Origin: Ornithodoros turicata
Lineage: Eukaryota; Arthropoda; Arachnida; Ixodida; Argasidae
DNA: 64,000 bases
Assembly (NCBI RefSeq): GCF_037126465.1
Contig: NC_088201.1
Coordinates: forward strand, 125,252,324-125,316,323
Reading direction: 5' to 3'
Part shown: positions 16,230 through 53,754 of the stretch, in pieces
How the letters are laid out: every line of letters starts with the position of its first letter
Position numbering within the stretch: the first letter of the stretch is position 1
Made by a program: the position numbers and the translations under genes
Notes under the pieces: model-generated
Databases searched by the model: none
Seen by the model: only the letters and a program-made list of their open reading frames with translations
Told to the model about the DNA's origin: nothing

Positions 16230-17874
16230 ATGGCAGCACAGTGTGTTTTTGCTAATTGTTGACTGTTTGCTGACCGTAGCAATAAGTTGTGGACACCCAA
16301 CCACTATTCCAGGATTTGTCAGGCTCACTTCGTCACTCGTAAGTACAAAATCCACGCGAGGAAAAGCATTCCGTTAGCGACTTTATATTATTTTTTCTGA
16401 AGGTCATCCATCCAGCGACCCTGCAGATGTTGACTATGTGCCATGCAAGTTCTTCCAGAATCCAAAGAAGGCTGAGAGAGCTGAGGAAAGGTGTAAAAGG
16501 TAGGTCCAGAATGAGCGGAACAAGTAGACGTATAATTTGCAAATGCTGACCTTTGTTGCTTGTTGTGCACAACACTGTATATTTGCTGTTTTGTCTGCTC
16601 TTCTTGTGGGCACCTGCGTTACATGGTCCTAGCTGAGAATAGGGCTAAGCAAGAAAGGGACAGCGTGCCAACCGAAGATTCTGATCAAGAGTACATGGGT
16701 GCTACAGGAGGCCAACCATTATCTTTGGATGAGGTGACAGGAACCGGTAAGTGGTCGTTGCTGGGCCATTGCCTTAGTATGTAGCTCAGATAGTCCTTAG
16801 CCATGACATGCTGCTTATTTATTAGAGGTGTACAGACAGATCCGTTATCGTACATGTGTACCAACTGTGCTGCAATTCATGCTGCAAACAATGCGCTGCG
16901 ATTACGGGTGGCAGAGCTGGAGCGTCAAAATGGTGTGCTGCAAAAGAAAGCGGCAAGCATAAAACGACATCACCAAAACAGAAGACGAAGAATCCCTGTA
17001 CTACGCTGGTATGCTTTTGCATAGTCCAAACTGTACAGCTGATTCATTTGGATAACCGAGGGAAATTATTTTCTTCTCACGATTACTTTACGAGGACTGT
17101 AAAAAGCCCATTTTTTGCAATCCTTATCACAGTTCTCCCAGTACCGCGATCAACCTTCCCCTGTGCCTGCCACCTCTACATGTTTCTCATGAAACTCAGA
17201 CTGAACACACCGTTCCAGCACCTAGCATATCACTTCCATGGTACACCCAGGACTGTACGGAAAGCTTTCGATGCATGTCTCAGACCGCTGTCACAGATAG
17301 CAGAAGAGCTAGGGGCTTTCGCTACATCGGAAGTTGCGAGAAGCTGGATCACTGATAAAGACAGTGTCCATTTTCCTAGACTGCAAAGTGCAGTGCATCG
17401 CAAAGGTGCAAGAAACGCTGCAAAGTGTTACGAAACGGTCAGTGGAAGGCAAACAGGAACGAGCGCCCACTTGTCCAAGACTTGCCCACTTGAGTGAAAC
17501 CTGTCCAAGAAAATATTTCGTATTTTGTATTTGGCAAGCTTTCGTGTTATATTACGGGGCATGTTTTATAGGGCTGTTAGGCTTACTACAAGAAGGAGAC
17601 CAAGTTATCGCCGACAGGTGATTCCTCCTCCATGAGGAGTTCTTCTCACGGAACATACAACTGGTTACACCAAGCTTCACACGGGGAGTGAAAGAACTTC
17701 CACATGAGCTCGTGTGCCGATCCACAAGACTGTCATCCTCATGAATAATTGTGGAACGTGCAATTGGACACGTTAAGAAGTGGATTGTGATGACTGGTAC
17801 AGTGCCGCACTTCCTGCGCAAGGATTATAGTAATATCCTTACTATTGTTGCTTGATGCTACAAATATGATGAAA
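16230..17874 (+). pseudogene. THAP-domain transposase gene, multi-exon and decayed
   Basis: Exon 1 (16230-16338) starts ATG, encodes MAAQCVFANC, then has an in-frame TGA (16260-16262). It reopens as a THAP C-terminal half (NKLWTPNHYSRICQAHFVT), ending at a GTAAGT donor. Exon 2 (16403-16499) gives HPSSDPADVDYVPCKFFQN, a typical post-THAP linker. Exons at about 16643-16746 and 16828-17020 follow; the latter has CTNCAAIHAANNALRLRVAE, a coiled-coil segment common after THAP domains. The catalytic part follows: a helix-turn-helix region (LMKLRLNTPFQHLAYHFHGT, about 17180-17245), a first-Asp strand (VSIFLDC, about 17365), a second-Asp motif (VIADR, then a stop, about 17610) and a Glu motif (VERAIGHVKKW, about 17750). 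This is the DDE_Tnp_4-like, THAP-fused type seen in IS4EU/ISL2EU transposons (assignment inferred). The central part of the THAP domain is missing and at least three in-frame stops occur, so it is dead. Confidence 0.75.
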
Positions 17875-18129: not shown

Positions 18130-18338
18130 ATCTAGCAGAATACTTGGCAAAATAAATTCTTTGAAAAAGCTAGTGATATTCTCAATGTTACCTTACCAAA
18201 GCTCATCATCTTTGGTAACAGTGAGTAACAACCCTCCACGCTCACCATATAGGAATAAATAACACAATTCTGTAGGGGTTGAGATGCAATTGTGTTTGCA
18301 CATGGTAATGCCACCTACGCGACGTCTTTAGTGTGCCT
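18130..18338 (-). pseudogene. 3' part of the SWIM/YqaJ gene, cut off by the LTR element
   Basis: On the minus strand, directly beyond the retrotransposon's target duplication, an open frame reads TLKTSRRWHYHVQTQLHL and ends about 20 codons later at a TGA. YqaJ-family nucleases have a Y-x-x-Q-x-Q motif shortly after the E-x-K strand, and HYHVQTQLHL fits it. The frame is the same as that of the YqaJ exon on the other side of the insertion. A minus-strand poly(A) signal follows. The frame ends earlier than I would expect for a full YqaJ domain, so the gene was probably already shortened or has a further exon I cannot see. Confidence 0.6.
18335..18338. repeat. Target-site duplication GCCT, left copy
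   Basis: GCCT immediately precedes the left LTR and recurs at 24412-24415 immediately after the right LTR. A 4-bp duplication is in the normal range for LTR elements. Confidence 0.8.
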
Positions 18339-18732
18339 TGTTGCGACATGGGTTCCGAGTCGACGTGGTAGCGAGCCGACACAGCCAGGGAAGGAAAACT
18401 ATACAGGTTTATTTACAGTGACATGTCAGTATGCGAGTGAGCAGTACAAAATGGCGCGCAGCGCTTTTAAAGGCTTGAACAAAGGAGCCACCGTTGACCT
18501 TCGCTGGATATGGCACCACGGTTTCCCAGAAATCCCTTGGAGCTGCGGAAGCACTTAGACTGCGTCCCTTTCTTTCCAACTTGGGGTAGGCCTTTGTTCC
18601 TGCGTTGGTTTGGATCGTGCAGATTCCTCAATGGGGATTAAAAGCGTCTGGCAGGTGTGCGTCCTTGTCGTCTGACCGAAGGTTCGAAGGACCTCTAACT
18701 TCTATTCCTTTCACCTTGGCTCTTTCGTAACA
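18339..18732 (-). repeat. 3' LTR of the Gmr1-like retrotransposon
   Basis: This 394-bp LTR is bounded by TG..CA (TGTTGCGACATGG...TTTCGTAACA on the plus strand). It differs from the other LTR at one position that I can see, A at 18675 against G at 24354. The element reads on the minus strand, so this is the downstream LTR. It contains AATAAA on the minus strand (18408-18413) for 3' processing. Confidence 0.93.
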
Positions 18733-18752
18733 TCACCCCGCCGCCGGGTGGT
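18733..18752 (-). promoter_or_regulatory. Candidate polypurine tract
   Basis: On the minus strand the bases abutting the 3' LTR read GGCGGCGGGGTGA. They are purine-rich with two interruptions, and sit where plus-strand DNA synthesis is primed in LTR elements. Confidence 0.5.
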
Positions 18753-19300
18753 CCATCAAGAGAAGGAGCGATCTTGAGTCTTGCTCCTTTGGATTGATGC
18801 AGAATCGCAGAAGCACACTCTATTTGCCAGGATGTCCAATCGTGGCACGAAGTAATTGGATGCTCTGATGCCGTGCTTTCAATTTGCAGAAGTGTTTGGC
18901 GTCGAATAGGCCAGACCAAGAGACCTCCCTGCTGTTTTCCTTCTTCGAAAGGTGACCCACTTATATAGTAACTGCAGGTAGAATGAGCACACAACAAAGG
19001 TAGAACAGTGACAGAATCGACCAACCACTCCAAACCACAATCCCAACACAGACAAGTGCCGGTTTTGTCGCATCGTCTGCCAGACTTAACAACATAAGGA
19101 CAAATCCTACGATTTATTCCCAGCTATCCCCAATAATCAAGAATATGTCCCATCAGTGCAGATCACAGCCAATCCTCCCAAAGTGAGACAGTTGTCTGTC
19201 AAAGCGCGTCCATGCGGGATCCTTTTCACGCAAATGCAAAAATGCAAACATTTCCCCAGATATTTACAGAATTTGGTCCACTTGGAGCTCGTCTTCTGAA
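18753..19300 (-). other. Pol to 3' LTR spacer without a gene
   Basis: About 550 bp follow the pol stop. A 112-codon ORF (18695-19033) runs into the LTR and has no envelope features such as a signal peptide plus C-terminal membrane anchor. I therefore treat the stretch as untranslated. Confidence 0.6.
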
Positions 19301-22300
19301 CTAAAAAGAGCGACTAAGCCCGTCAGCGTTACCATTGTCAGCTCCCTTCTTGTACTTTATCTCGAAATTATAAGGCTGTAACGCTAAGCTCCAACGGAGC
19401 AGTCGACCATTCTTCGCGGACATGTTTTTCAGCCACGTTAGCGGGCAGTGGTCAGTCTCAATTACAAATTTGGACCCGGACAGATAGCAAGAGAGGTTTT
19501 GGACTGCCCAGATCAAGCATGCGCACCCTTTTTCTGTTGCGCAGTAGGCTTCTTCTCGCCCCGTCAGTTTGCGACTTATATACAGAATTGGTCTTTCACG
19601 ACCGCCTTCATCTAACTGACAAAGGACTGCACCAATGCCACGATCGCTGGCGTCACACTGCACGAAGAACGTGCGGTTGTAGTCCGGGGCCTTTAGGATA
19701 GGCTTGTGTGTGAGTGCCTCTTTTAACTCGCGGAAGGCCCTTTCCTTTGTGTCATCCCACTTGATGACATTCGGTTCAGTCGTTCTCAAAGCATCGGTTA
19801 GGGGACTAGCGATACTGGAGTAACTTCTGATATAATGCTGGTAGTACCCCGCGAGTCCTAGAAACGCTCTAAGCTCAGTTTTGGTAGTTGGTCGCGGGTA
19901 CTCTGCTACAGCTGCGATCTTCACGTCGGCTGGACGGCGATATCCTTGTCCTATCACATGCCCTAAATACGTGACCTCGGCCTTCCCGATCTGACATTTT
20001 TCCGCACGCACCGTGAGTCCTGCGTCGCGAAGCCTTTCCAGTACGGTTCGAAGATGCCGAATGTGATCTTCCCAGCCGTCCGAGAAGATAGCGATATCAT
20101 CTAGATACGGGAGTGCGAAATCTCGCAGCCCTTTTAGCACGCGGTCCATAAGGCTCGAAAAGAAAAAGGGAGCGTTCTTTAACCCAAAGCTGAGCATTTT
20201 TGGGCGAAATGTTCCCAACGGGGAAACAAAGGCGGCATATCTGCTTGCGCGCTCCGTTAAAGGGACTTGCCAGTACCCGCGAACGAGGTCTAGGGTGGAG
20301 ATGTACTTCGCCTTACTTACGACCTCCACCCTTTCCTCGATATTCGGTATCGGATACGTTTGATCACGGGTAATGGTATTCAACTTCCGATAATCTACGC
20401 ACGGTCGGGCGTCCTTTCCGGGCACTTCTACTAGTATCAGTGGGGATGTGAAATCGCTTTCCCCAGGTTCGATGATACCTAGATCTAGCATGCGCTTTAT
20501 CTCGCTCTCCATGATCTCTCTCTGCCTCGGCGATACTCGGTAGGGCTTGGAACGAACCGGCTCATCACTAAGTAGCTCGATGTCGTGTTCCACCAAATTC
20601 GTTTTTCCCGGTCTGCTCGAGAATACGTCCTGGTATTCTGAAAATATCTGTTTTACGTCTCTCAACTGGTCTTCAGGAAGCGTCCCACTGTTCACTACCT
20701 TTCGGAGGAGTTCTTCAATGCTAAATTCTGGGCTACCAACTGCCTTGGGTATGTCCTGTGACATCTCCTCTGGCGCGTTCAGAGTTAGATTTACCACTGC
20801 CTCGCGCTCCCGGTACGGTTTCATTAGATTACAGTGAAACAGCTGGATGTCCTTACGCTTGCCTTCCATTTTTACGGCGTAGTTGGTCTCAGAAAGCTTC
20901 TGTACTACGCGAGCTGGGCCTTCCCATCTTACATCCAATTTGTTTTGTTTAGACGGTTTCAGAAGCATGACCCTGTCGTCTACTTGAAAGGTCCTTGCTT
21001 TTGCCGATCTGTCGTAGTATTTCTTTGATTTCTCCTGAGCTGACTTCATGTTTGCTCTTACTACTTCTCTAGCTCTGTACAATCTATCGAGCAGATCTAA
21101 AATGTACTGGACTACATTTGGGTCTTCTCCTTTTCCCTCCCAAGACTCCTTCAACATTCGCAAGGGTGTTCGTAGCGAACGCCCGTACACGAGCTCGGCC
21201 GGACTAAATCCCGTGCTCTCGTGTGCTACAGAACGCAGCGCAAACATCGTTGCCGGAAGGCATGACTCCCAGTTAGTCTTGTGCTCGTAACATAATGCTC
21301 TCAGCACCCTTTTGAGGACGGAATGCATCCTCTCCACGCTGTTGGATTGAGGATGATGCACTGAGCTATGGATTATTTTCATGCCACATTTCTCTAGGAA
21401 GGTAGTTGTGAGGTTGCTCGTGAAAACACTGCCATTGTCGCTCTGGATTTCTGCGGGGAAGCCCACCCTAGCAAATATGGAGAGGAGCGCGTCTACCACT
21501 TGCACGGAACTCAATTCCCTTAGAGCTACGGCCTCGGGGAACTTCGTGGCTGGACACAGCGGTGTTAGAACGTAGCGATGTCCTTGCTCTGTCGCGGGTA
21601 AGGGACCGACAATGTCAATCACCAGTCTGCGGAAGGGCTCGGTGATTATTGGCACGAGACACATTGGGGCCTTTCGCTGATCTGTCGGCTTTCCCACGCG
21701 TTGGCATGTATCGCATGATTTCACCCAGTTTTCGATGTCTTTCCAGCAACCTGGCCAGTAATACTCCGCAGTTAGACGAGCCTTAGTCTTTCGAACGCCT
21801 AAGTGCCCTGACCACGCATTGCTGTGAGGCAAATGCAGGAGATCTTCCCTGTACTTTTGTGGAACGACTACTTGGTCAAACACTCTACCGTTTTTATCCC
21901 TGTATCGCCGATACAGCAAGTTCTGTTTTTCGTAGAATGAGATGTTCTTTCTAGCAACGCCCTCTTTAACGCTATCACACAGGTTACGTATCGATGGGTC
22001 GCTCTTTTGCTCTGCTGCCAAAGCAGCTTGATCTACTTTCGCCAGCGATTGGAAACTGTTAGATACTGGCGCCAAGATCGCCCCGCACTCGTCTGAATTT
22101 TCAGTATCTTTACTAGACTGCATGTCCGAGTTTTTCTCACTAACTTCGATATCGCTGGTCTGATCTGACTTCGGCGATTCGTCTGACGTCACGGCGTTCG
22201 CATTTGTCTCAGGAGCGCTTTTGTCGGCGCTGTACGTCATCTGTCCGGCTAGCTCTCGCGCCTTGGAGCGTGTCAACGCCTGCACTAGTTCTAGGGAAAA

Positions 22301-22783
22301 GCACTGTCCCCTATCCCGCAGCAACTGATCCGATTTGTTGGAAAAGAGGTACGGATAGTGCGAAGGGAGGTTCGCGGAAACGGCTGCTTCTGTTGCAAGT
22401 ACTCCGAAAGGTCCCTCAATCGTCACTCTGGCTACAGGAAGGCATACACTATTCTCCTCTACGACTTGCTTAATCCACGCACAATCACCTGTTAGGTCGT
22501 CGGGGCGAATGTACGAGGGAGGGATTACGTCCATCGTGGCAGCGGAGTCACGAAGTACTCTGCATTCCTTCCCGTTTACTCTAAGGGTTTTCGTGTACGG
22601 ATCCAAGAGCTTTATGTTTTCCTCGCTCTCGCTCACATAGGAAAATACCATCTTTCTCTCACACTGGGCTGCCATGTGACCCGGTTTCTTACAGTTATAG
22701 CAAACTTTAGGCTTTCTGGCTTCAAATACCCTGGTGTTCTCTCGACTGGGTCTAGTCTCGACTTCCCTTTTCGTGGCTACCGT
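19301..22783 (-). CDS. pol: Pol polyprotein: zinc knuckle, protease, integrase, RT, RNase H
   Basis: The frame is open from just after the gag stop (22784-22786). The first ATG is at 22675, giving 1124 codons. Upstream of that ATG the frame encodes a CCHC knuckle (CYNCKKPGHMAAQC), so the ATG lies inside it and is probably not the real start. Residues below count from that ATG. Protease has D43-S44-A45 in VLRDSAATMDVI. Integrase has a zinc motif H283/H290/C320/C323 and a catalytic triad D353, D412, E447 (DD35E spacing), then a GPY-like module to about residue 621. RT has PCVDYRKLN (757-765), D795 in STLDLVRGYWQ and YLDD at 856-859. RNase H has D1007, E1048, D1074 and D1117. All key residues are present and the frame has no internal stop, so the enzymes look intact. 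Protease is probably cis-acting in the particle. The domain order is the notable feature. Confidence 0.93.
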   Translation of the reverse strand, partial: TVATKREVETRPSRENTRVFEARKPKVCYNCKKPGHMAAQCERKMVFSYVSESEENIKLLDPYTKTLRVNGKECRVLRDSAATMDVIPPSYIRPDDLTGDCAWIKQVVEENSVCLPVARVTIEGPFGVLATEAAVSANLPSHYPYLFSNKSDQLLRDRGQCFSLELVQALTRSKARELAGQMTYSADKSAPETNANAVTSDESPKSDQTSDIEVSEKNSDMQSSKDTENSDECGAILAPVSNSFQSLAKVDQAALAAEQKSDPSIRNLCDSVKEGVARKNISFYEKQNLLYRRYRDKNGRVFDQVVVPQKYREDLLHLPHSNAWSGHLGVRKTKARLTAEYYWPGCWKDIENWVKSCDTCQRVGKPTDQRKAPMCLVPIITEPFRRLVIDIVGPLPATEQGHRYVLTPLCPATKFPEAVALRELSSVQVVDALLSIFARVGFPAEIQSDNGSVFTSNLTTTFLEKCGMKIIHSSVHHPQSNSVERMHSVLKRVLRALCYEHKTNWESCLPATMFALRSVAHESTGFSPAELVYGRSLRTPLRMLKESWEGKGEDPNVVQYILDLLDRLYRAREVVRANMKSAQEKSKKYYDRSAKARTFQVDDRVMLLKPSKQNKLDVRWEGPARVVQKLSETNYAVKMEGKRKDIQLFHCNLMKPYREREAVVNLTLNAPEEMSQDIPKAVGSPEFSIEELLRKVVNSGTLPEDQLRDVKQIFSEYQDVFSSRPGKTNLVEHDIELLSDEPVRSKPYRVSPRQREIMESEIKRMLDLGIIEPGESDFTSPLILVEVPGKDARPCVDYRKLNTITRDQTYPIPNIEERVEVVSKAKYISTLDLVRGYWQVPLTERASRYAAFVSPLGTFRPKMLSFGLKNAPFFFSSLMDRVLKGLRDFALPYLDDIAIFSDGWEDHIRHLRTVLERLRDAGLTVRAEKCQIGKAEVTYLGHVIGQGYRRPADVKIAAVAEYPRPTTKTELRAFLGLAGYYQHYIRSYSSIASPLTDALRTTEPNVIKWDDTKERAFRELKEALTHKPILKAPDYNRTFFVQCDASDRGIGAVLCQLDEGGRERPILYISRKLTGREEAYCATEKGCACLIWAVQNLSCYLSGSKFVIETDHCPLTWLKNMSAKNGRLLRWSLALQPYNFEIKYKKGADNGNADGLSRSF

Positions 22784-22786
22784 TTA
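22784..22786 (-). promoter_or_regulatory. In-frame gag terminator, candidate readthrough site
   Basis: A single TAA separates gag from the downstream frame. The next 36 codons to the first pol ATG are open and encode the Gag-type zinc knuckle. Either translation reads through this codon to make Gag-Pol, as some retroelements do, or the stop is a recent inactivating mutation. The sequence alone does not decide. Context: GAC, TAA, ACG, GTA. Confidence 0.5.
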
Positions 22787-23758
22787 GTCCGTCAATCTCT
22801 CTTTGCTTGACGATCTACGCCCTTCTTCTTTAGCACGCTCTCCTCGTTTGAGAAACTCTGTCCGGTTCTCCCTACTGTTTTTAGACCGAACAACTTGGTC
22901 CTCTTTAAGACCTCTCCGAGTCGCGTATTCCTCTGCGTATTCGGCCGCCGTTTGGATATTAGGTTCTTTTAGCCTGTCCTGAATCCAAAATTTGGCTTGC
23001 TCCGGGATGCCACGGTAAAATTGCTCTAAAGCAACGCACTCGACCACTTTGTCGTGATTCCCGTAGGCTTCCGCACTCTTGAGCCATTCGACTAAGTTGG
23101 CTTTAAGGTTGTACCCGAACTCTGGATAGGACTCACTCGTCTTTTTCGTCGCGTTACGAAACCTTTGCCTGAACGCTTCCGTGGACAAACGATACTTCTT
23201 TAGGAGCGCTGACTTTGTCTTATCATAGTCGGCTGCATCCTCTTTACTCAGTCTGGCGATCACATCGGCCGCTTCGCACGGGAGTAGAGTTAGCAATTTT
23301 TGAGGCCAGCAATCTTTCGAGAAACCGACTTTTTCGCACGTTCTTTCGAAGTTGACGAGGAACAATCCAACGTCTTCGCCTACCTTGAACGGTTGCATCA
23401 AGTCTTTCATCTTGAAGCTCTCTGTCCCCCTCTCACTAGACGGGGTGGTAGCACGACTACTCCCTTGGACCTCCAGACGTTTCATTCCCAAGTCTATCCT
23501 TTTTGCTTCGAGTTCCTGTGCCTTTACTCTTTCCTCGGCCTTCTGCCGCTCTACCTCAGCCCTCTGCCTCTCTTCCTTTTCCTCCCGCTCACGCTTCTCT
23601 ACGATTAGCTCCCAACATTCTAATAGCTCAATTTCCTCTACGTCTGATCCGTGAATGAGCTCTATCAAATGTGGTTTTCTTTTTGCCTTCTCTATGTTGA
23701 TTCCCAAATCATCACATAGCGCTAGTAGGTCCGGCACGCGCAGCTTATTAAGATCCAT
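22784..23758 (-). CDS. gag: Gag with SAP-like start, coiled coil and SCAN-like capsid
   Basis: 324 codons from ATG at 23758. Residues 1-35 (LRVPDLLALCDDLGI..KPHLIELI) look like a SAP/HeH-type helix pair. Residues 50-95 are a highly charged Glu/Arg/Lys coiled coil. Residues 115-195 form the N-terminal capsid region (FLVNFERTCEKVGF). Residues 196-280 run FRQRFRN...EWLK...VVECVALEQFYRGIPEQA..WI...EP....AAEYAEEY, which matches the helix pattern of vertebrate SCAN domains. SCAN domains are known to derive from Gmr1-like capsids. The protein ends in a basic tail, and the nucleocapsid zinc knuckle lies after the stop codon, in the pol frame. It would form the virus-like particle shell. Confidence 0.88.
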   Translation of the reverse strand: MDLNKLRVPDLLALCDDLGINIEKAKRKPHLIELIHGSDVEEIELLECWELIVEKREREEKEERQRAEVERQKAEERVKAQELEAKRIDLGMKRLEVQGSSRATTPSSERGTESFKMKDLMQPFKVGEDVGLFLVNFERTCEKVGFSKDCWPQKLLTLLPCEAADVIARLSKEDAADYDKTKSALLKKYRLSTEAFRQRFRNATKKTSESYPEFGYNLKANLVEWLKSAEAYGNHDKVVECVALEQFYRGIPEQAKFWIQDRLKEPNIQTAAEYAEEYATRRGLKEDQVVRSKNSRENRTEFLKRGERAKEEGRRSSSKERLTD

Positions 23759-23995
23759 GTCTCACTCAGAACTGGCTACACTCCGCACTGTACTTTTTCC
23801 TGACTTTCGGTTTCACACAGTAATTACCACACAGGTACTATCACACAGCTATCACAAAGTTACCACACAGGTATCACACAGAAAGTTTCCAACTGCCGCT
23901 ACAATTTCACACAGTCTATGCAGCTAACAGCCTGGCAAACGAGCGCATAAAAACCAAGCACTCACCCACGCTAGAAGTCATGGCCCGACGAAGTC

Positions 23996-24017
23996 AATCC
24001 CGACGCTGCCAACCAGT
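23996..24017 (-). promoter_or_regulatory. Candidate tRNA primer-binding site
   Basis: Reading minus, the bases after the 5' LTR are AC, TGGTTGGCAGCGTCGGGATT. A TGG start within a few bases of the LTR edge is the usual primer-binding signature, complementary to a tRNA CCA end. Two TGG positions are possible, at offset 2 or 6. I cannot name the tRNA. Confidence 0.6.
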
Positions 24018-24411
24018 TGTTGCGACATGGGTTCCGAGTCGACGTGGTAGCGAGCCGACACAGCCAGGGAAGGAAAACTATACAGGTTTATTTACAGTGA
24101 CATGTCAGTATGCGAGTGAGCAGTACAAAATGGCGCGCAGCGCTTTTAAAGGCTTGAACAAAGGAGCCACCGTTGACCTTCGCTGGATATGGCACCACGG
24201 TTTCCCAGAAATCCCTTGGAGCTGCGGAAGCACTTAGACTGCGTCCCTTTCTTTCCAACTTGGGGTAGGCCTTTGTTCCTGCGTTGGTTTGGATCGTGCA
24301 GATTCCTCAATGGGGATTAAAAGCGTCTGGCAGGTGTGCGTCCTTGTCGTCTGGCCGAAGGTTCGAAGGACCTCTAACTTCTATTCCTTTCACCTTGGCT
24401 CTTTCGTAACA
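24018..24411 (-). repeat. 5' LTR of the Gmr1-like retrotransposon
   Basis: This 394-bp LTR is identical to 18339-18732 except at 24354 (G). On the minus strand it carries a TATA-like CCTTTAAAAG around 24143-24151 and, about 55 bp downstream, AATAAA (24087-24092). That order fits promoter, short R region and poly(A) signal. Confidence 0.92.
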
Positions 24412-24845
24412 GCCTTCAGGGGACAGGCAAAAGTTAGCTCCTTTCTGCCCTTCTTCAACTAAATTTGCAGGTTCAACATCCCTAACACTGTACACACTAG
24501 CATAGCACTTCACTTCTACCAACATTGACGAGTGACAGTTGCAGTCAAAAAGTCTGCACCCCAGGAAAGGAAAGGTGGGGTCTATCATGAGCGCAGAATT
24601 GGTTTGATCACATGTTTCAAGCTCTATCTGAGCTGCAGACTCTTTCGAAATCCTAGGGTGCTCCATTGCAAAATTGCACATATCCTTCAGGCTCTCTCTT
24701 ATATCACTTTGGGTCATAGAGTAGAGTGCTCTCTCTGGTGTTATGTAGATTTCCGAGGACGCTGTTTCGTGGCTTGTATGACCTTGCGGTGTACCCTGTT
24801 TTGATTTACTTCGGTCAGTGTGAAGTCCCTTGCTTGTGGAGCAAT
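24412..24845 (-). pseudogene. YqaJ-type nuclease exon, interrupted by the retrotransposon
   Basis: The exon starts after an acceptor (TTTGTTTCCAG) at 24845. It encodes about 145 residues with a recognisable YqaJ/lambda-exonuclease-like core. AMEHPRISKESAAQIE corresponds to the family's helix before the catalytic strand. LMIDPTFPFLGCRLFDCNC corresponds to the D-P-x-x-P-F-L-G-x-x-x-D block, with the Asp shifted. LVEVKCY is the E-x-K strand. The nuclease would act on DNA ends. The frame runs straight into the LTR and resumes at 18338. The exon phase does not match the preceding exon's phase, so this copy may have been defective before the insertion. Related SWIM-plus-YqaJ proteins are abundant in arthropod genomes as transposon-like genes. 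Confidence 0.7.
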
Positions 24846-24959
24846 CTGGAAACAAACGATGCATGAACTCTGTGTGCTGGAATTAAGTTTTACAAGAATA
24901 CTTAGGGCAATGTGACCTACAGTTGTTTCAAATACTGCCCCTGTCTAACAGCACCTTAC

Positions 24960-52531: not shown

Positions 52532-52604
52532 GTTAGCTTAGTTCAATTGGTAGAGCCCTGGACCGGCAATCCAGAAGATGTGGGTTCGAGTCCTACAGCT
52601 GGCT
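52532..52604 (+). repeat. Intact tRNA-like cloverleaf, head of a SINE
   Basis: The 73 bases fold by inspection into acceptor (GTTAGCT / AGCTGGC, two G-T wobbles), D arm (GTTC..GAGC), anticodon arm CTGGA-CCGGCAA-TCCAG, 5-base variable loop and T arm GTGGG-TTCGAGT-CCTAC. The apparent anticodon is GGC (alanine-type), but position 33 is C instead of the near-invariant T. The 3' half recurs at 6214-6265 with shared flanking sequence, so it is a SINE head rather than a functional tRNA gene. A poly-A run at about 52772-52784 may be its tail. Confidence 0.65.
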
Positions 52605-53053: not shown

Positions 53054-53754
53054 CTACTTAAGCAAGTTATGGAGAACGCAAACTGTTTGTATGAGCAGGG
53101 ACACTTTCTCTGGGGTCGCGTAAATTTTCGTATGAAAAATTCTTAAGCGATTTGAAAGCACTCCAAATGTACTCTCTATAATTATCCGTGCTCTCGATAG
53201 CCTATAGTTGAACGTCTTCTCTTCCTGGTTGAGGAACAGCCCAGGGTAGGGCTTCATGACATTTTCGGACAACGGGAAGGCGTCATCAGCTACTGTGACG
53301 GCTGGCAAACACAGGCATGAGTTGGTGAGCTTTACACTTGTAGGCAGGTTAGCGGCACCATTTGAAACCTGCTTTCCAAATGACATTCTTGCCCACACGC
53401 CACCATCACTTGCAGAGCCTGGCGTACCACTGTGAGCATACAATATGTTCTGGCGCGCATCGACGAGCGCCAAAAGTATCATACTCAACGAATTCTTGTC
53501 GCTGTAGTACAGCGATCCGCTTTTTCCAGGTTTCACGATTTCCACATGTTTGCCGTCCATGGTTGCCACACAGTTAGGAAATTGCCACAACATCTGGAAT
53601 TCCTGGGCTTTGTCCAGCCACTCCTATTCGCTTCTTGGTAGCTGTATCAAATGTCCAAATTCGGCCAGAATTGCTTTGCATGTGTCACATAGAATGGTAT
53701 TCACTGTACTGTGGCCCATTCGGAACTGGAACGCCAACGATGCTTGGCTTTCCC
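53054..53754 (-). pseudogene. PIF/Harbinger-type DDE transposase (HARBI1-like)
   Basis: After an acceptor (CATTTTTAG, exon from 53754) the frame encodes a helix-turn-helix segment (GESQASLAFQFRMGHSTVNT). It meets an in-frame TAG (53624-53626), then continues without a stop to 53054. Downstream are EWLDKAQEFQMLWQFPNC, first Asp in ATMDGKHVEI, second Asp in VADDAFPL, Glu in RIIIESTFGVLSNRLRIF and the C-terminal VCVLHNLL. All three catalytic positions are kept. The N-terminal exon is not found, so this copy is broken. The gene converges on the MADF exons at 50.9 kb, which is the standard two-gene Harbinger layout. Confidence 0.88.

What the first reader, a model, noticed from the sequence alone, without database searches (positions are those of the whole stretch)
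19301..22675. Ty3/gypsy-type retrotransposon with integrase ahead of reverse transcriptase (Gmr1-like order)
In a single uninterrupted frame the order is protease (D43), integrase (HHCC, D353/D412/E447, GPY-like module), RT (YLDD 856-859), RNase H (D1007). Seen directly. Known: nearly all Ty3/gypsy elements have RT-RNase H-integrase; the reversed order in a Ty3-like element defines the Gmr1-like group, first described in deuterostomes. An apparently intact, young member in what looks like an arthropod genome is worth placing.
Basis: partly seen in the sequence, partly recalled or inferred. Interest (0 to 1): 0.85.

Follow-up and report, generated by a model that had tools for sequence, protein, structure and literature searches.

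The report
Integrase-first gypsy retrotransposon in ticks
A jumping gene, likely young and likely in a tick genome, belongs to a family shared with vertebrates and molluscs whose DNA-inserting enzyme sits ahead of its copying enzyme, and in its own arthropod branch every member compared has an inserting enzyme one residue shorter at the active site than all the other relatives compared.

Summary
The ORF at 19301-22675 (minus strand) reads protease, integrase, reverse transcriptase, RNase H. It lies in a 6,073-bp LTR element (394-bp LTRs, one difference; 4-bp target duplication AGGC). Two corrections: the ORF's ATG is inside the zinc knuckle, so it is likely no real start; and one in-frame TAA separates gag from the rest, while 94 of 174 listed relatives carry gag, integrase and RT in one ORF. 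So this copy is young but likely cannot make Gag-Pol itself.

The order is no local rearrangement. RT and integrase trees (79 rows) each put all 52 integrase-first rows on one side of a single branch; they include fish, turtle, salamander and scallop elements. Gag carries a SCAN domain, a Gmr1-like mark in print. It is a Gmr1-like member; Gmr1-like elements in protostomes were reported in 2013 (crustaceans).

New here: the window's 27-row clade (its named members are ticks, spiders and a beetle) has a DD34E integrase, lacking the loop glycine three residues before the catalytic Glu; the other 52 rows have DD35E with that glycine. On the RT tree this is one change. I found no report of it in the papers searched. 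Copy number was not measured: the genome search did not complete.

The parts
18339..24411 (-). whole LTR retrotransposon, 6,073 bp
   Evidence: LTR pair, TSD and ORFs
24018..24411 (-). 5' LTR, 394 bp, TGTT...AACA; TTTAAAAG at 24143-24150 and AATAAA at 24087-24092 as possible TATA and poly(A) signals
   Evidence: signal roles are inferred from motif only
18339..18732 (-). 3' LTR, 394 bp, one difference from the 5' LTR
24412..24415 (-). target site duplication AGGC, left copy
18335..18338 (-). target site duplication AGGC, right copy
23996..24015 (-). candidate primer binding site TGGTTGGCAGCGTCGGGATT, 2 bases downstream of the 5' LTR
   Evidence: sequence; resemblance to a tRNA-Leu 3' end is recalled and imperfect (one extra T), untested
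22784..23758 (-). gag ORF (324 aa), ends in an in-frame TAA (22784-22786)
22913..23179 (-). SCAN domain (capsid C-terminal domain) in Gag
   Evidence: PF02023, E 7.8e-14 (coordinates); matches solved SCAN-containing chains of ZNF24 (E 0.0011) and PEG3 (E 0.0023)
22661..22702 (-).
   Evidence: PF00098 weak hit, below its cut-off, on the N-terminal part
19301..22783 (-). open pol frame after the TAA (protease, integrase, RT, RNase H)
22547..22549 (-). protease catalytic Asp43 (D-S-A triad)
   Evidence: no Pfam hit for the protease piece
21692..21865 (-). integrase HHCC zinc-binding domain
   Evidence: PF17921
21326..21643 (-). integrase catalytic core with D354, D413, E448 (DD34E)
   Evidence: PF00665; spacing
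21329..21364 (-). active-site loop and catalytic Glu, SVHHPQSNSVER; loop glycine absent
20816..20920 (-). integrase C-terminal (GPY/F-type) module, reads GPA here
   Evidence: PF22938; GPA in 5 of 52 integrase-first rows
19952..20416 (-). reverse transcriptase, YLDD at 20096-20107
   Evidence: PF00078
19370..19759 (-). RNase H
   Evidence: PF17917/PF17919

Best explanation
This is a 6,073-bp LTR retrotransposon of the Gmr1-like (integrase-first) branch of Ty3/gypsy elements, likely in a tick genome, with a SCAN-type Gag and a DD34E integrase, and it would have moved by reverse transcription of its RNA inside Gag particles followed by integrase-driven insertion. Shown: LTR pair, 4-bp target duplication, domain order, SCAN domain, position in the RT and integrase trees, integrase spacing. 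Inferred: a transcript starting in the 5' LTR is translated, in working relatives, as one Gag-protease-integrase-RT-RNase H chain; the SCAN part joins Gag subunits; the protease cuts the chain; RT copies the RNA from a tRNA primer; the integrase joins the cDNA to target DNA with a 4-bp stagger. The integrase-first order most likely arose once, before the sampled vertebrate, mollusc and arthropod elements split. In the arthropod lineage the integrase then most likely lost one residue, the loop glycine, next to the catalytic glutamate. This copy likely inserted recently; its single in-frame stop would limit it to Gag unless read through, so it most likely moved with proteins from another copy or gained the stop at or after insertion.
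For: Order by Pfam on pieces. 160 of 174 listed relatives have integrase before RT; the rest are 6 incomplete, 3 incomplete with several RTs, and 5 models fusing several RTs, of which 4 scored RT-first and 1 integrase-first. Of those 4, P0215 alternates IN-RT-IN-RT and the other 3 are fused models holding a real RT-first stretch. RT tree: integrase-first rows one side of a branch, 100/100, in 100% of 200 bootstrap trees. Integrase tree: the same, SH-aLRT 100. SCAN in Gag; SCAN is listed for 33 of the 51 other integrase-first rows of the tree (my count). Printed sources tie SCAN to Gmr1-like Gag: PMC4131045, PMC4592553, PMC3424704 (passages). LTR and TSD. DD34E with Asn at E-3 in 27 of 27 rows of the window's clade; DD35E with Gly at E-3 in 52 of 52 others; one change on the RT tree, 100/100. 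Host: 98% match in O. turicata.
Against: The original cod Gmr1 sequence was not among my rows by name; the link rests on order, SCAN and vertebrate relatives. RT-first rows came from a separate search and from three fused models, so a close RT-first neighbour could have been missed; only 120 of 5,145 RT hits and 120 of 426 integrase-plus-RT hits were visible. Roots are assumed on the RT-first side. No AU test was run; the RT tree warns of long RT-first branches and odd composition in 4 rows, the integrase tree of 14 long branches. SCAN is not listed for 10 of 11 spider-type rows. Pfam does not see the protease. One contaminant locus (L020) has an integrase piece upstream of a P0097-like RT, 1.8 kb apart; I read it as two elements, but it was not resolved. 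In this copy the TAA interrupts gag-pol. Copy number, expression and other copies were not seen (genome search did not complete).
Confidence: 0.93

Rival explanations
1. An ordinary Ty3/gypsy element (Mag, CsRn1 or other) whose pol was rearranged locally, in this copy or lineage only.
For: Most Ty3/gypsy elements are RT-first, as 28 of the 30 contaminant loci with both domains scored here were.
Against: RT and integrase separately fall in the integrase-first branch; 160 of 174 listed relatives share the order.
Confidence: 0.02
2. The arthropod lineage acquired the integrase-first order independently of vertebrate Gmr1-like elements (convergence).
For: The arthropod clade is deep and distinct (27 rows), and RT-first sampling is thin.
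Against: All 52 integrase-first rows form one side of a 100/100 branch on RT and of an SH-aLRT 100 branch on integrase; SCAN Gag is shared by tick, beetle, fish, turtle and scallop rows.
Confidence: 0.04
3. The gag stop is a programmed readthrough stop, as in some retroviruses, rather than damage.
For: Gag and pol are in one frame with only one stop, and everything downstream is open.
Against: 94 of 174 listed relatives, among them the nearest full-length ones P0002 and P0003 (80-83% identical in integrase and RT), carry gag, integrase and RT in a single ORF; the stop is TAA and lies before the zinc knuckle, so unsuppressed Gag would lack its RNA-binding part.
Confidence: 0.08
4. DD34E is an alignment artefact or decay rather than a real lineage feature.
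For: It is a one-residue difference in a loop, and 52 of the 174 listed proteins could not be scored by motif.
Against: The spacing was counted on raw motifs too: 76 proteins with 34, 46 with 35; 27 of 27 against 0 of 52 in the alignment; all 79 rows keep D, D and E.
Confidence: 0.03

Closest known systems
Gmr1-like Ty3/gypsy elements (Goodwin and Poulter 2002; title seen in a reference list; paper not held)
   Same: Integrase upstream of RT; RT and integrase of Ty3/gypsy type; SCAN-type Gag; animal hosts.
   Different: Found here in ticks and relatives; integrase DD34E instead of the DD35E of the vertebrate rows; SCAN not listed in most spider-type members.
Crustacean Gmr1-like elements GyRex4, Gychoro2, GyMaja1, GyLiva4 (PMC3587641, passages)
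   Same: Arthropod Gmr1-like elements, called there the first described in protostomes.
   Different: Sequences not fetched, so whether they are DD34E or DD35E is unknown.
Squirrel and Toxo clades of Ixodes scapularis (PMC4748124, passages)
   Same: Tick Ty3/gypsy clades said to be likely chelicerate-specific; the passages give TG..CA LTRs, 4-bp duplication, CCHC Gag.
   Different: The passages give two ORFs, no domain order and no SCAN; either clade could be this lineage. Supplements were not readable.
Ty3 of yeast (PDB 7q5b, 4ol8)
   Same: Homologous RT-RNase H (E 3e-73, 4ol8) and integrase (E 3.9e-27, 7q5b).
   Different: RT before integrase; DD35E with the loop glycine.
SCAN zinc-finger proteins of vertebrates (ZNF24, PEG3)
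   Same: SCAN domain homologous to this Gag's capsid part.
   Different: Host transcription factors; said in print to derive from Gmr1-like Gag (PMC4592553, PMC3424704; passages).

Membership tests
Gmr1-like Ty3/gypsy | integrase upstream of RT in pol | tested here: met
Gmr1-like Ty3/gypsy | RT groups with integrase-first elements of vertebrates, apart from RT-first elements | tested here: met
   100/100
Gmr1-like Ty3/gypsy | integrase groups the same way | tested here: met
   SH-aLRT 100
Gmr1-like Ty3/gypsy | SCAN-type domain in Gag | tested here: met
   printed link
Gmr1-like Ty3/gypsy | direct grouping with the named cod element Gmr1 | not testable with these tools
   no sequence of that name was among the listed hits or 41
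LTR retrotransposon | LTR pair, TG..CA ends, target duplication | tested here: met
LTR retrotransposon | tRNA primer binding site next to the 5' LTR | tested here: inconclusive
   candidate TGG... site; no host tRNA set searched; one search found only one tRNA-Ala-like gene in the window
LTR integrase of the DD35E type | 35 residues between the second Asp and the Glu | tested here: not met
   34 residues
Intact autonomous element | unbroken gag-pol coding | tested here: not met
   in-frame TAA at 22784-22786
Errantivirus-like retrovirus | env gene | tested here: not met
   between pol and the 3' LTR the minus strand has no ORF of 100 aa or more except one with a TTG start that runs into the LTR (18695-19033), which was not searched

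The most novel reading that the evidence does not exclude
Arthropods carry their own, previously undescribed Gmr1-like lineage that lost the hinge glycine of the integrase active-site loop once and became fixed as DD34E, while still integrating. It would be a natural exception to the DD35E spacing of LTR-element integrases and would show that the integrase-first order and SCAN-type capsid predate the split of arthropods and vertebrates.
Probability: 0.55. Interest if true: 0.6.

Novelty: new variant of a known kind. Interest (0 to 1): 0.5.

Why it matters
It shows integrase-first gypsy elements with SCAN-type Gag in several tick genera and a beetle, and integrase-first relatives in spiders, so the ancestor of the vertebrate SCAN domain is likely older than its best-known hosts. 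The clade-wide DD34E integrase is a natural test of how much loop length and the hinge glycine matter: in HIV-1 the loop 140-149 is described as crucial for activity (PMC2920056, passages), yet this lineage likely kept inserting without the glycine, as the near-identical LTRs and clean target duplication here suggest.

Tried and rejected
Local rearrangement and a fully intact element were both tested and rejected. Two scans of viral contigs found no relatives, nor did the first of prokaryote genome contigs; the second gave 34 loci with conventional Ty3/gypsy RTs in records filed as bacteria or archaea, read here as eukaryotic contamination. Of these 34, 23 served as RT-first rows. Dropped: L010, L018, L028 and L033 (no integrase match); L022, L030, L031, L032 and L034 (RT or integrase match too short); L020 and L025, which scored integrase-first because an integrase piece lies near the contig start. 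L025 has a second integrase piece after its RT; L020 was not resolved. Plasmid records: no match. The interrupted flank ORF looked like a YqaJ-type exonuclease to me (recalled motif); Pfam on the pieces and on the joined flanks did not support it. A first motif count was fouled by RNase H and protease matches and replaced by a restricted one.
Full report
What is there. The ORF at 19301-22675 on the minus strand is real and open. Pfam on its pieces gives the integrase domains first (H2C2, rve, p58_C) and RT plus RNase H after them. The protease piece hits no Pfam model; its Asp43 is in a D-S-A triad, which 30 of 106 relatives share at that site, so it is likely a lineage variant rather than damage to this copy. 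The ORF is part of a larger element: two 394-bp LTRs (24018-24411, 18339-18732) with one difference, TGTT...AACA ends, and AGGC directly outside both. A search of the window with LTR, gag and pol pieces found no second copy.

The start and the stop. The frame is open from 22783 and continues, across one TAA, into gag (22784-23758). In 94 of 174 listed relatives gag, integrase and RT lie in one ORF, including P0002 and P0003, the nearest full-length ones. I read the TAA as most likely specific to this copy or its close kin; I could not look at other copies, because the genome search did not answer in nine tries. The closest protein, P0001, is a 979-aa model that starts within the protease and says nothing about the stop.

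Host. P0001 is 98% identical over the RT region and 99% over integrase, from the soft tick Ornithodoros turicata. The window is therefore likely from that species or a near relative (inference).

Is the order a local accident? No. The RT search (5,145 hits, best 120 visible) and a search with integrase plus RT of a beetle relative (426 hits, best 120 visible) gave 174 distinct proteins. Of these, 160 have integrase before RT, 6 are incomplete, 3 are incomplete with several RTs, and 5 are models that fuse several RTs, 4 scored RT-first and 1 integrase-first. P0215 of those alternates IN-RT-IN-RT; P0097, P0098, P0101 and P0084 hold a conventional RT-integrase stretch.

Trees. For 79 rows I cut RT-RNase H and integrase apart: the window, 51 other integrase-first proteins that I chose from the 174 for spread, three conventional stretches (P0097, P0101, P0084), yeast Ty3 (pieces) and 23 of the 34 contaminant loci from prokaryote records. 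On RT the integrase-first rows are one side of one branch with support 100/100 and in 100% of 200 bootstrap trees (quick version). On integrase the same split has SH-aLRT 100 (quick method only). Within it, the window joins a 27-row clade (RT: SH-aLRT 100 and 100/100; integrase: SH-aLRT 99) whose named members are ticks (Ornithodoros, Ixodes, Haemaphysalis, Rhipicephalus), spiders (Argiope, Araneus, Oedothorax, Stegodyphus, Trichonephila, Uloborus) and the beetle Onthophagus. The other 25 integrase-first rows include coho salmon, goldfish, Coilia, soft-shelled turtle, Pleurodeles, the scallop Ylistrum and one hard tick protein (P0241, Dermacentor); 18 of the 25 are unnamed. Both trees warn of long branches on the RT-first side and of rows with odd composition; the inner order of that side is not used. 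No AU test was run.

Gag. The window's Gag has a SCAN domain (E 7.8e-14) and matches solved chains of SCAN proteins. By the precomputed Pfam listing (my count), SCAN is present in 9 of 12 tick-type rows (in the other three no gag was found), 3 of 3 beetle-type, 1 of 11 spider-type and 20 of 25 other integrase-first rows. In frogs SCAN is reported in over 50% of Gmr elements and in no other element type (PMC4131045, passages), and vertebrate SCAN domains are said to derive from Gmr1-like Gag (PMC4592553, PMC3424704, PMC8143547, passages). The original paper on that (PMC3209298) and the 2002 Gmr1 paper are not held.

The integrase spacing. Between the second catalytic Asp and the Glu the window has 34 residues, not 35. 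In the integrase alignment, 27 of 27 rows of the arthropod clade have 34 with Asn three residues before the Glu; 25 of 25 other integrase-first rows and 27 of 27 RT-first rows have 35 with Gly there; all 79 keep D, D, E. A motif count over the 174 proteins gave 76 with 34, 46 with 35, and 52 not scored because the region was missing or the pattern did not fit. On the RT tree, which does not contain these columns, the trait needs one change, support 100/100. The simplest reading is one deletion in the arthropod lineage. One tick protein, P0241, is DD35E but lies outside this clade. By alignment to the HIV-1 numbering as I recall it, the lost residue is the equivalent of Gly149, the end of the flexible loop 140-149 described as crucial for activity (PMC2920056, passages). 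That the lineage still integrates is inferred from the near-identical LTRs, the clean 4-bp duplication and the many open relatives; it was not tested.

Is it in print? Listings are capped and were judged by title, counts and abstract starts. Gmr1 alone (2,184 papers, 30 listed, none of the 30 on retrotransposons of this kind), Gmr1 with SCAN (188, 15 listed), Gmr1 phrases (12 papers, among them crustacean, annelid, mollusc and frog surveys and one on a Drosophila domesticated gag gene, but none by title on ticks, spiders or beetles), Gmr1 with arthropod and tick terms (33, 20 listed), SCAN with tick, spider and arthropod terms (49, 15 listed, none of the 15 holding 'SCAN domain'), DD34E with retrotransposon and integrase (5 papers; by title four concern DNA transposons and one mixed Anopheles elements), other spellings (13 papers) and two more (3; 137, 10 listed, none of the 10 holding Gmr1) gave no report of this lineage or of DD34E in an LTR element. 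The library lacks most subscription journals. The Squirrel and Toxo clades of Ixodes (PMC4748124, passages) may be this lineage; their supplements could not be read. PMC8556966 (passages) already lists Gmr1 among clades present in several phyla.

Verdict. A new member of the Gmr1-like group, in a lineage with a fixed integrase variant: new variant of a known kind.

Noticed in passing
window 24412-24882 (-) and 18245-18334 (-): The element interrupts an open frame that would continue for 30 codons across the empty site; it resembles a YqaJ-type exonuclease to my eye (recalled), but Pfam shows nothing above chance.
   Followed up: partly
window 53057-53623 (-): DDE_Tnp_4 nuclease (E 4.9e-26), likely a PIF/Harbinger-type transposase piece.
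   Followed up: no
window 16829-17494 (+): ORF with a HTH_Tnp_4 match (E 2.4e-06), just above the cut-off, likely another transposase relic.
   Followed up: no
window 52532-52604 (+): tRNA-Ala call with anticodon GGC, which eukaryotes do not normally use (recalled); possibly a tRNA-derived SINE.
   Followed up: no
P0241 (Dermacentor silvarum LOC125939922): A second integrase-first lineage in a tick record, DD35E, grouping with scallop-like rows; contamination not excluded.
   Followed up: partly
P0141 and P0164, P0220: SCAN Gag proteins filed under Anaplasma and a pol protein filed under an archaeon; likely tick or other arthropod contamination of those records.
   Followed up: no
L001-L034: 34 contigs filed under prokaryotes encode Ty3/gypsy RTs, likely eukaryotic contamination.
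   Followed up: partly
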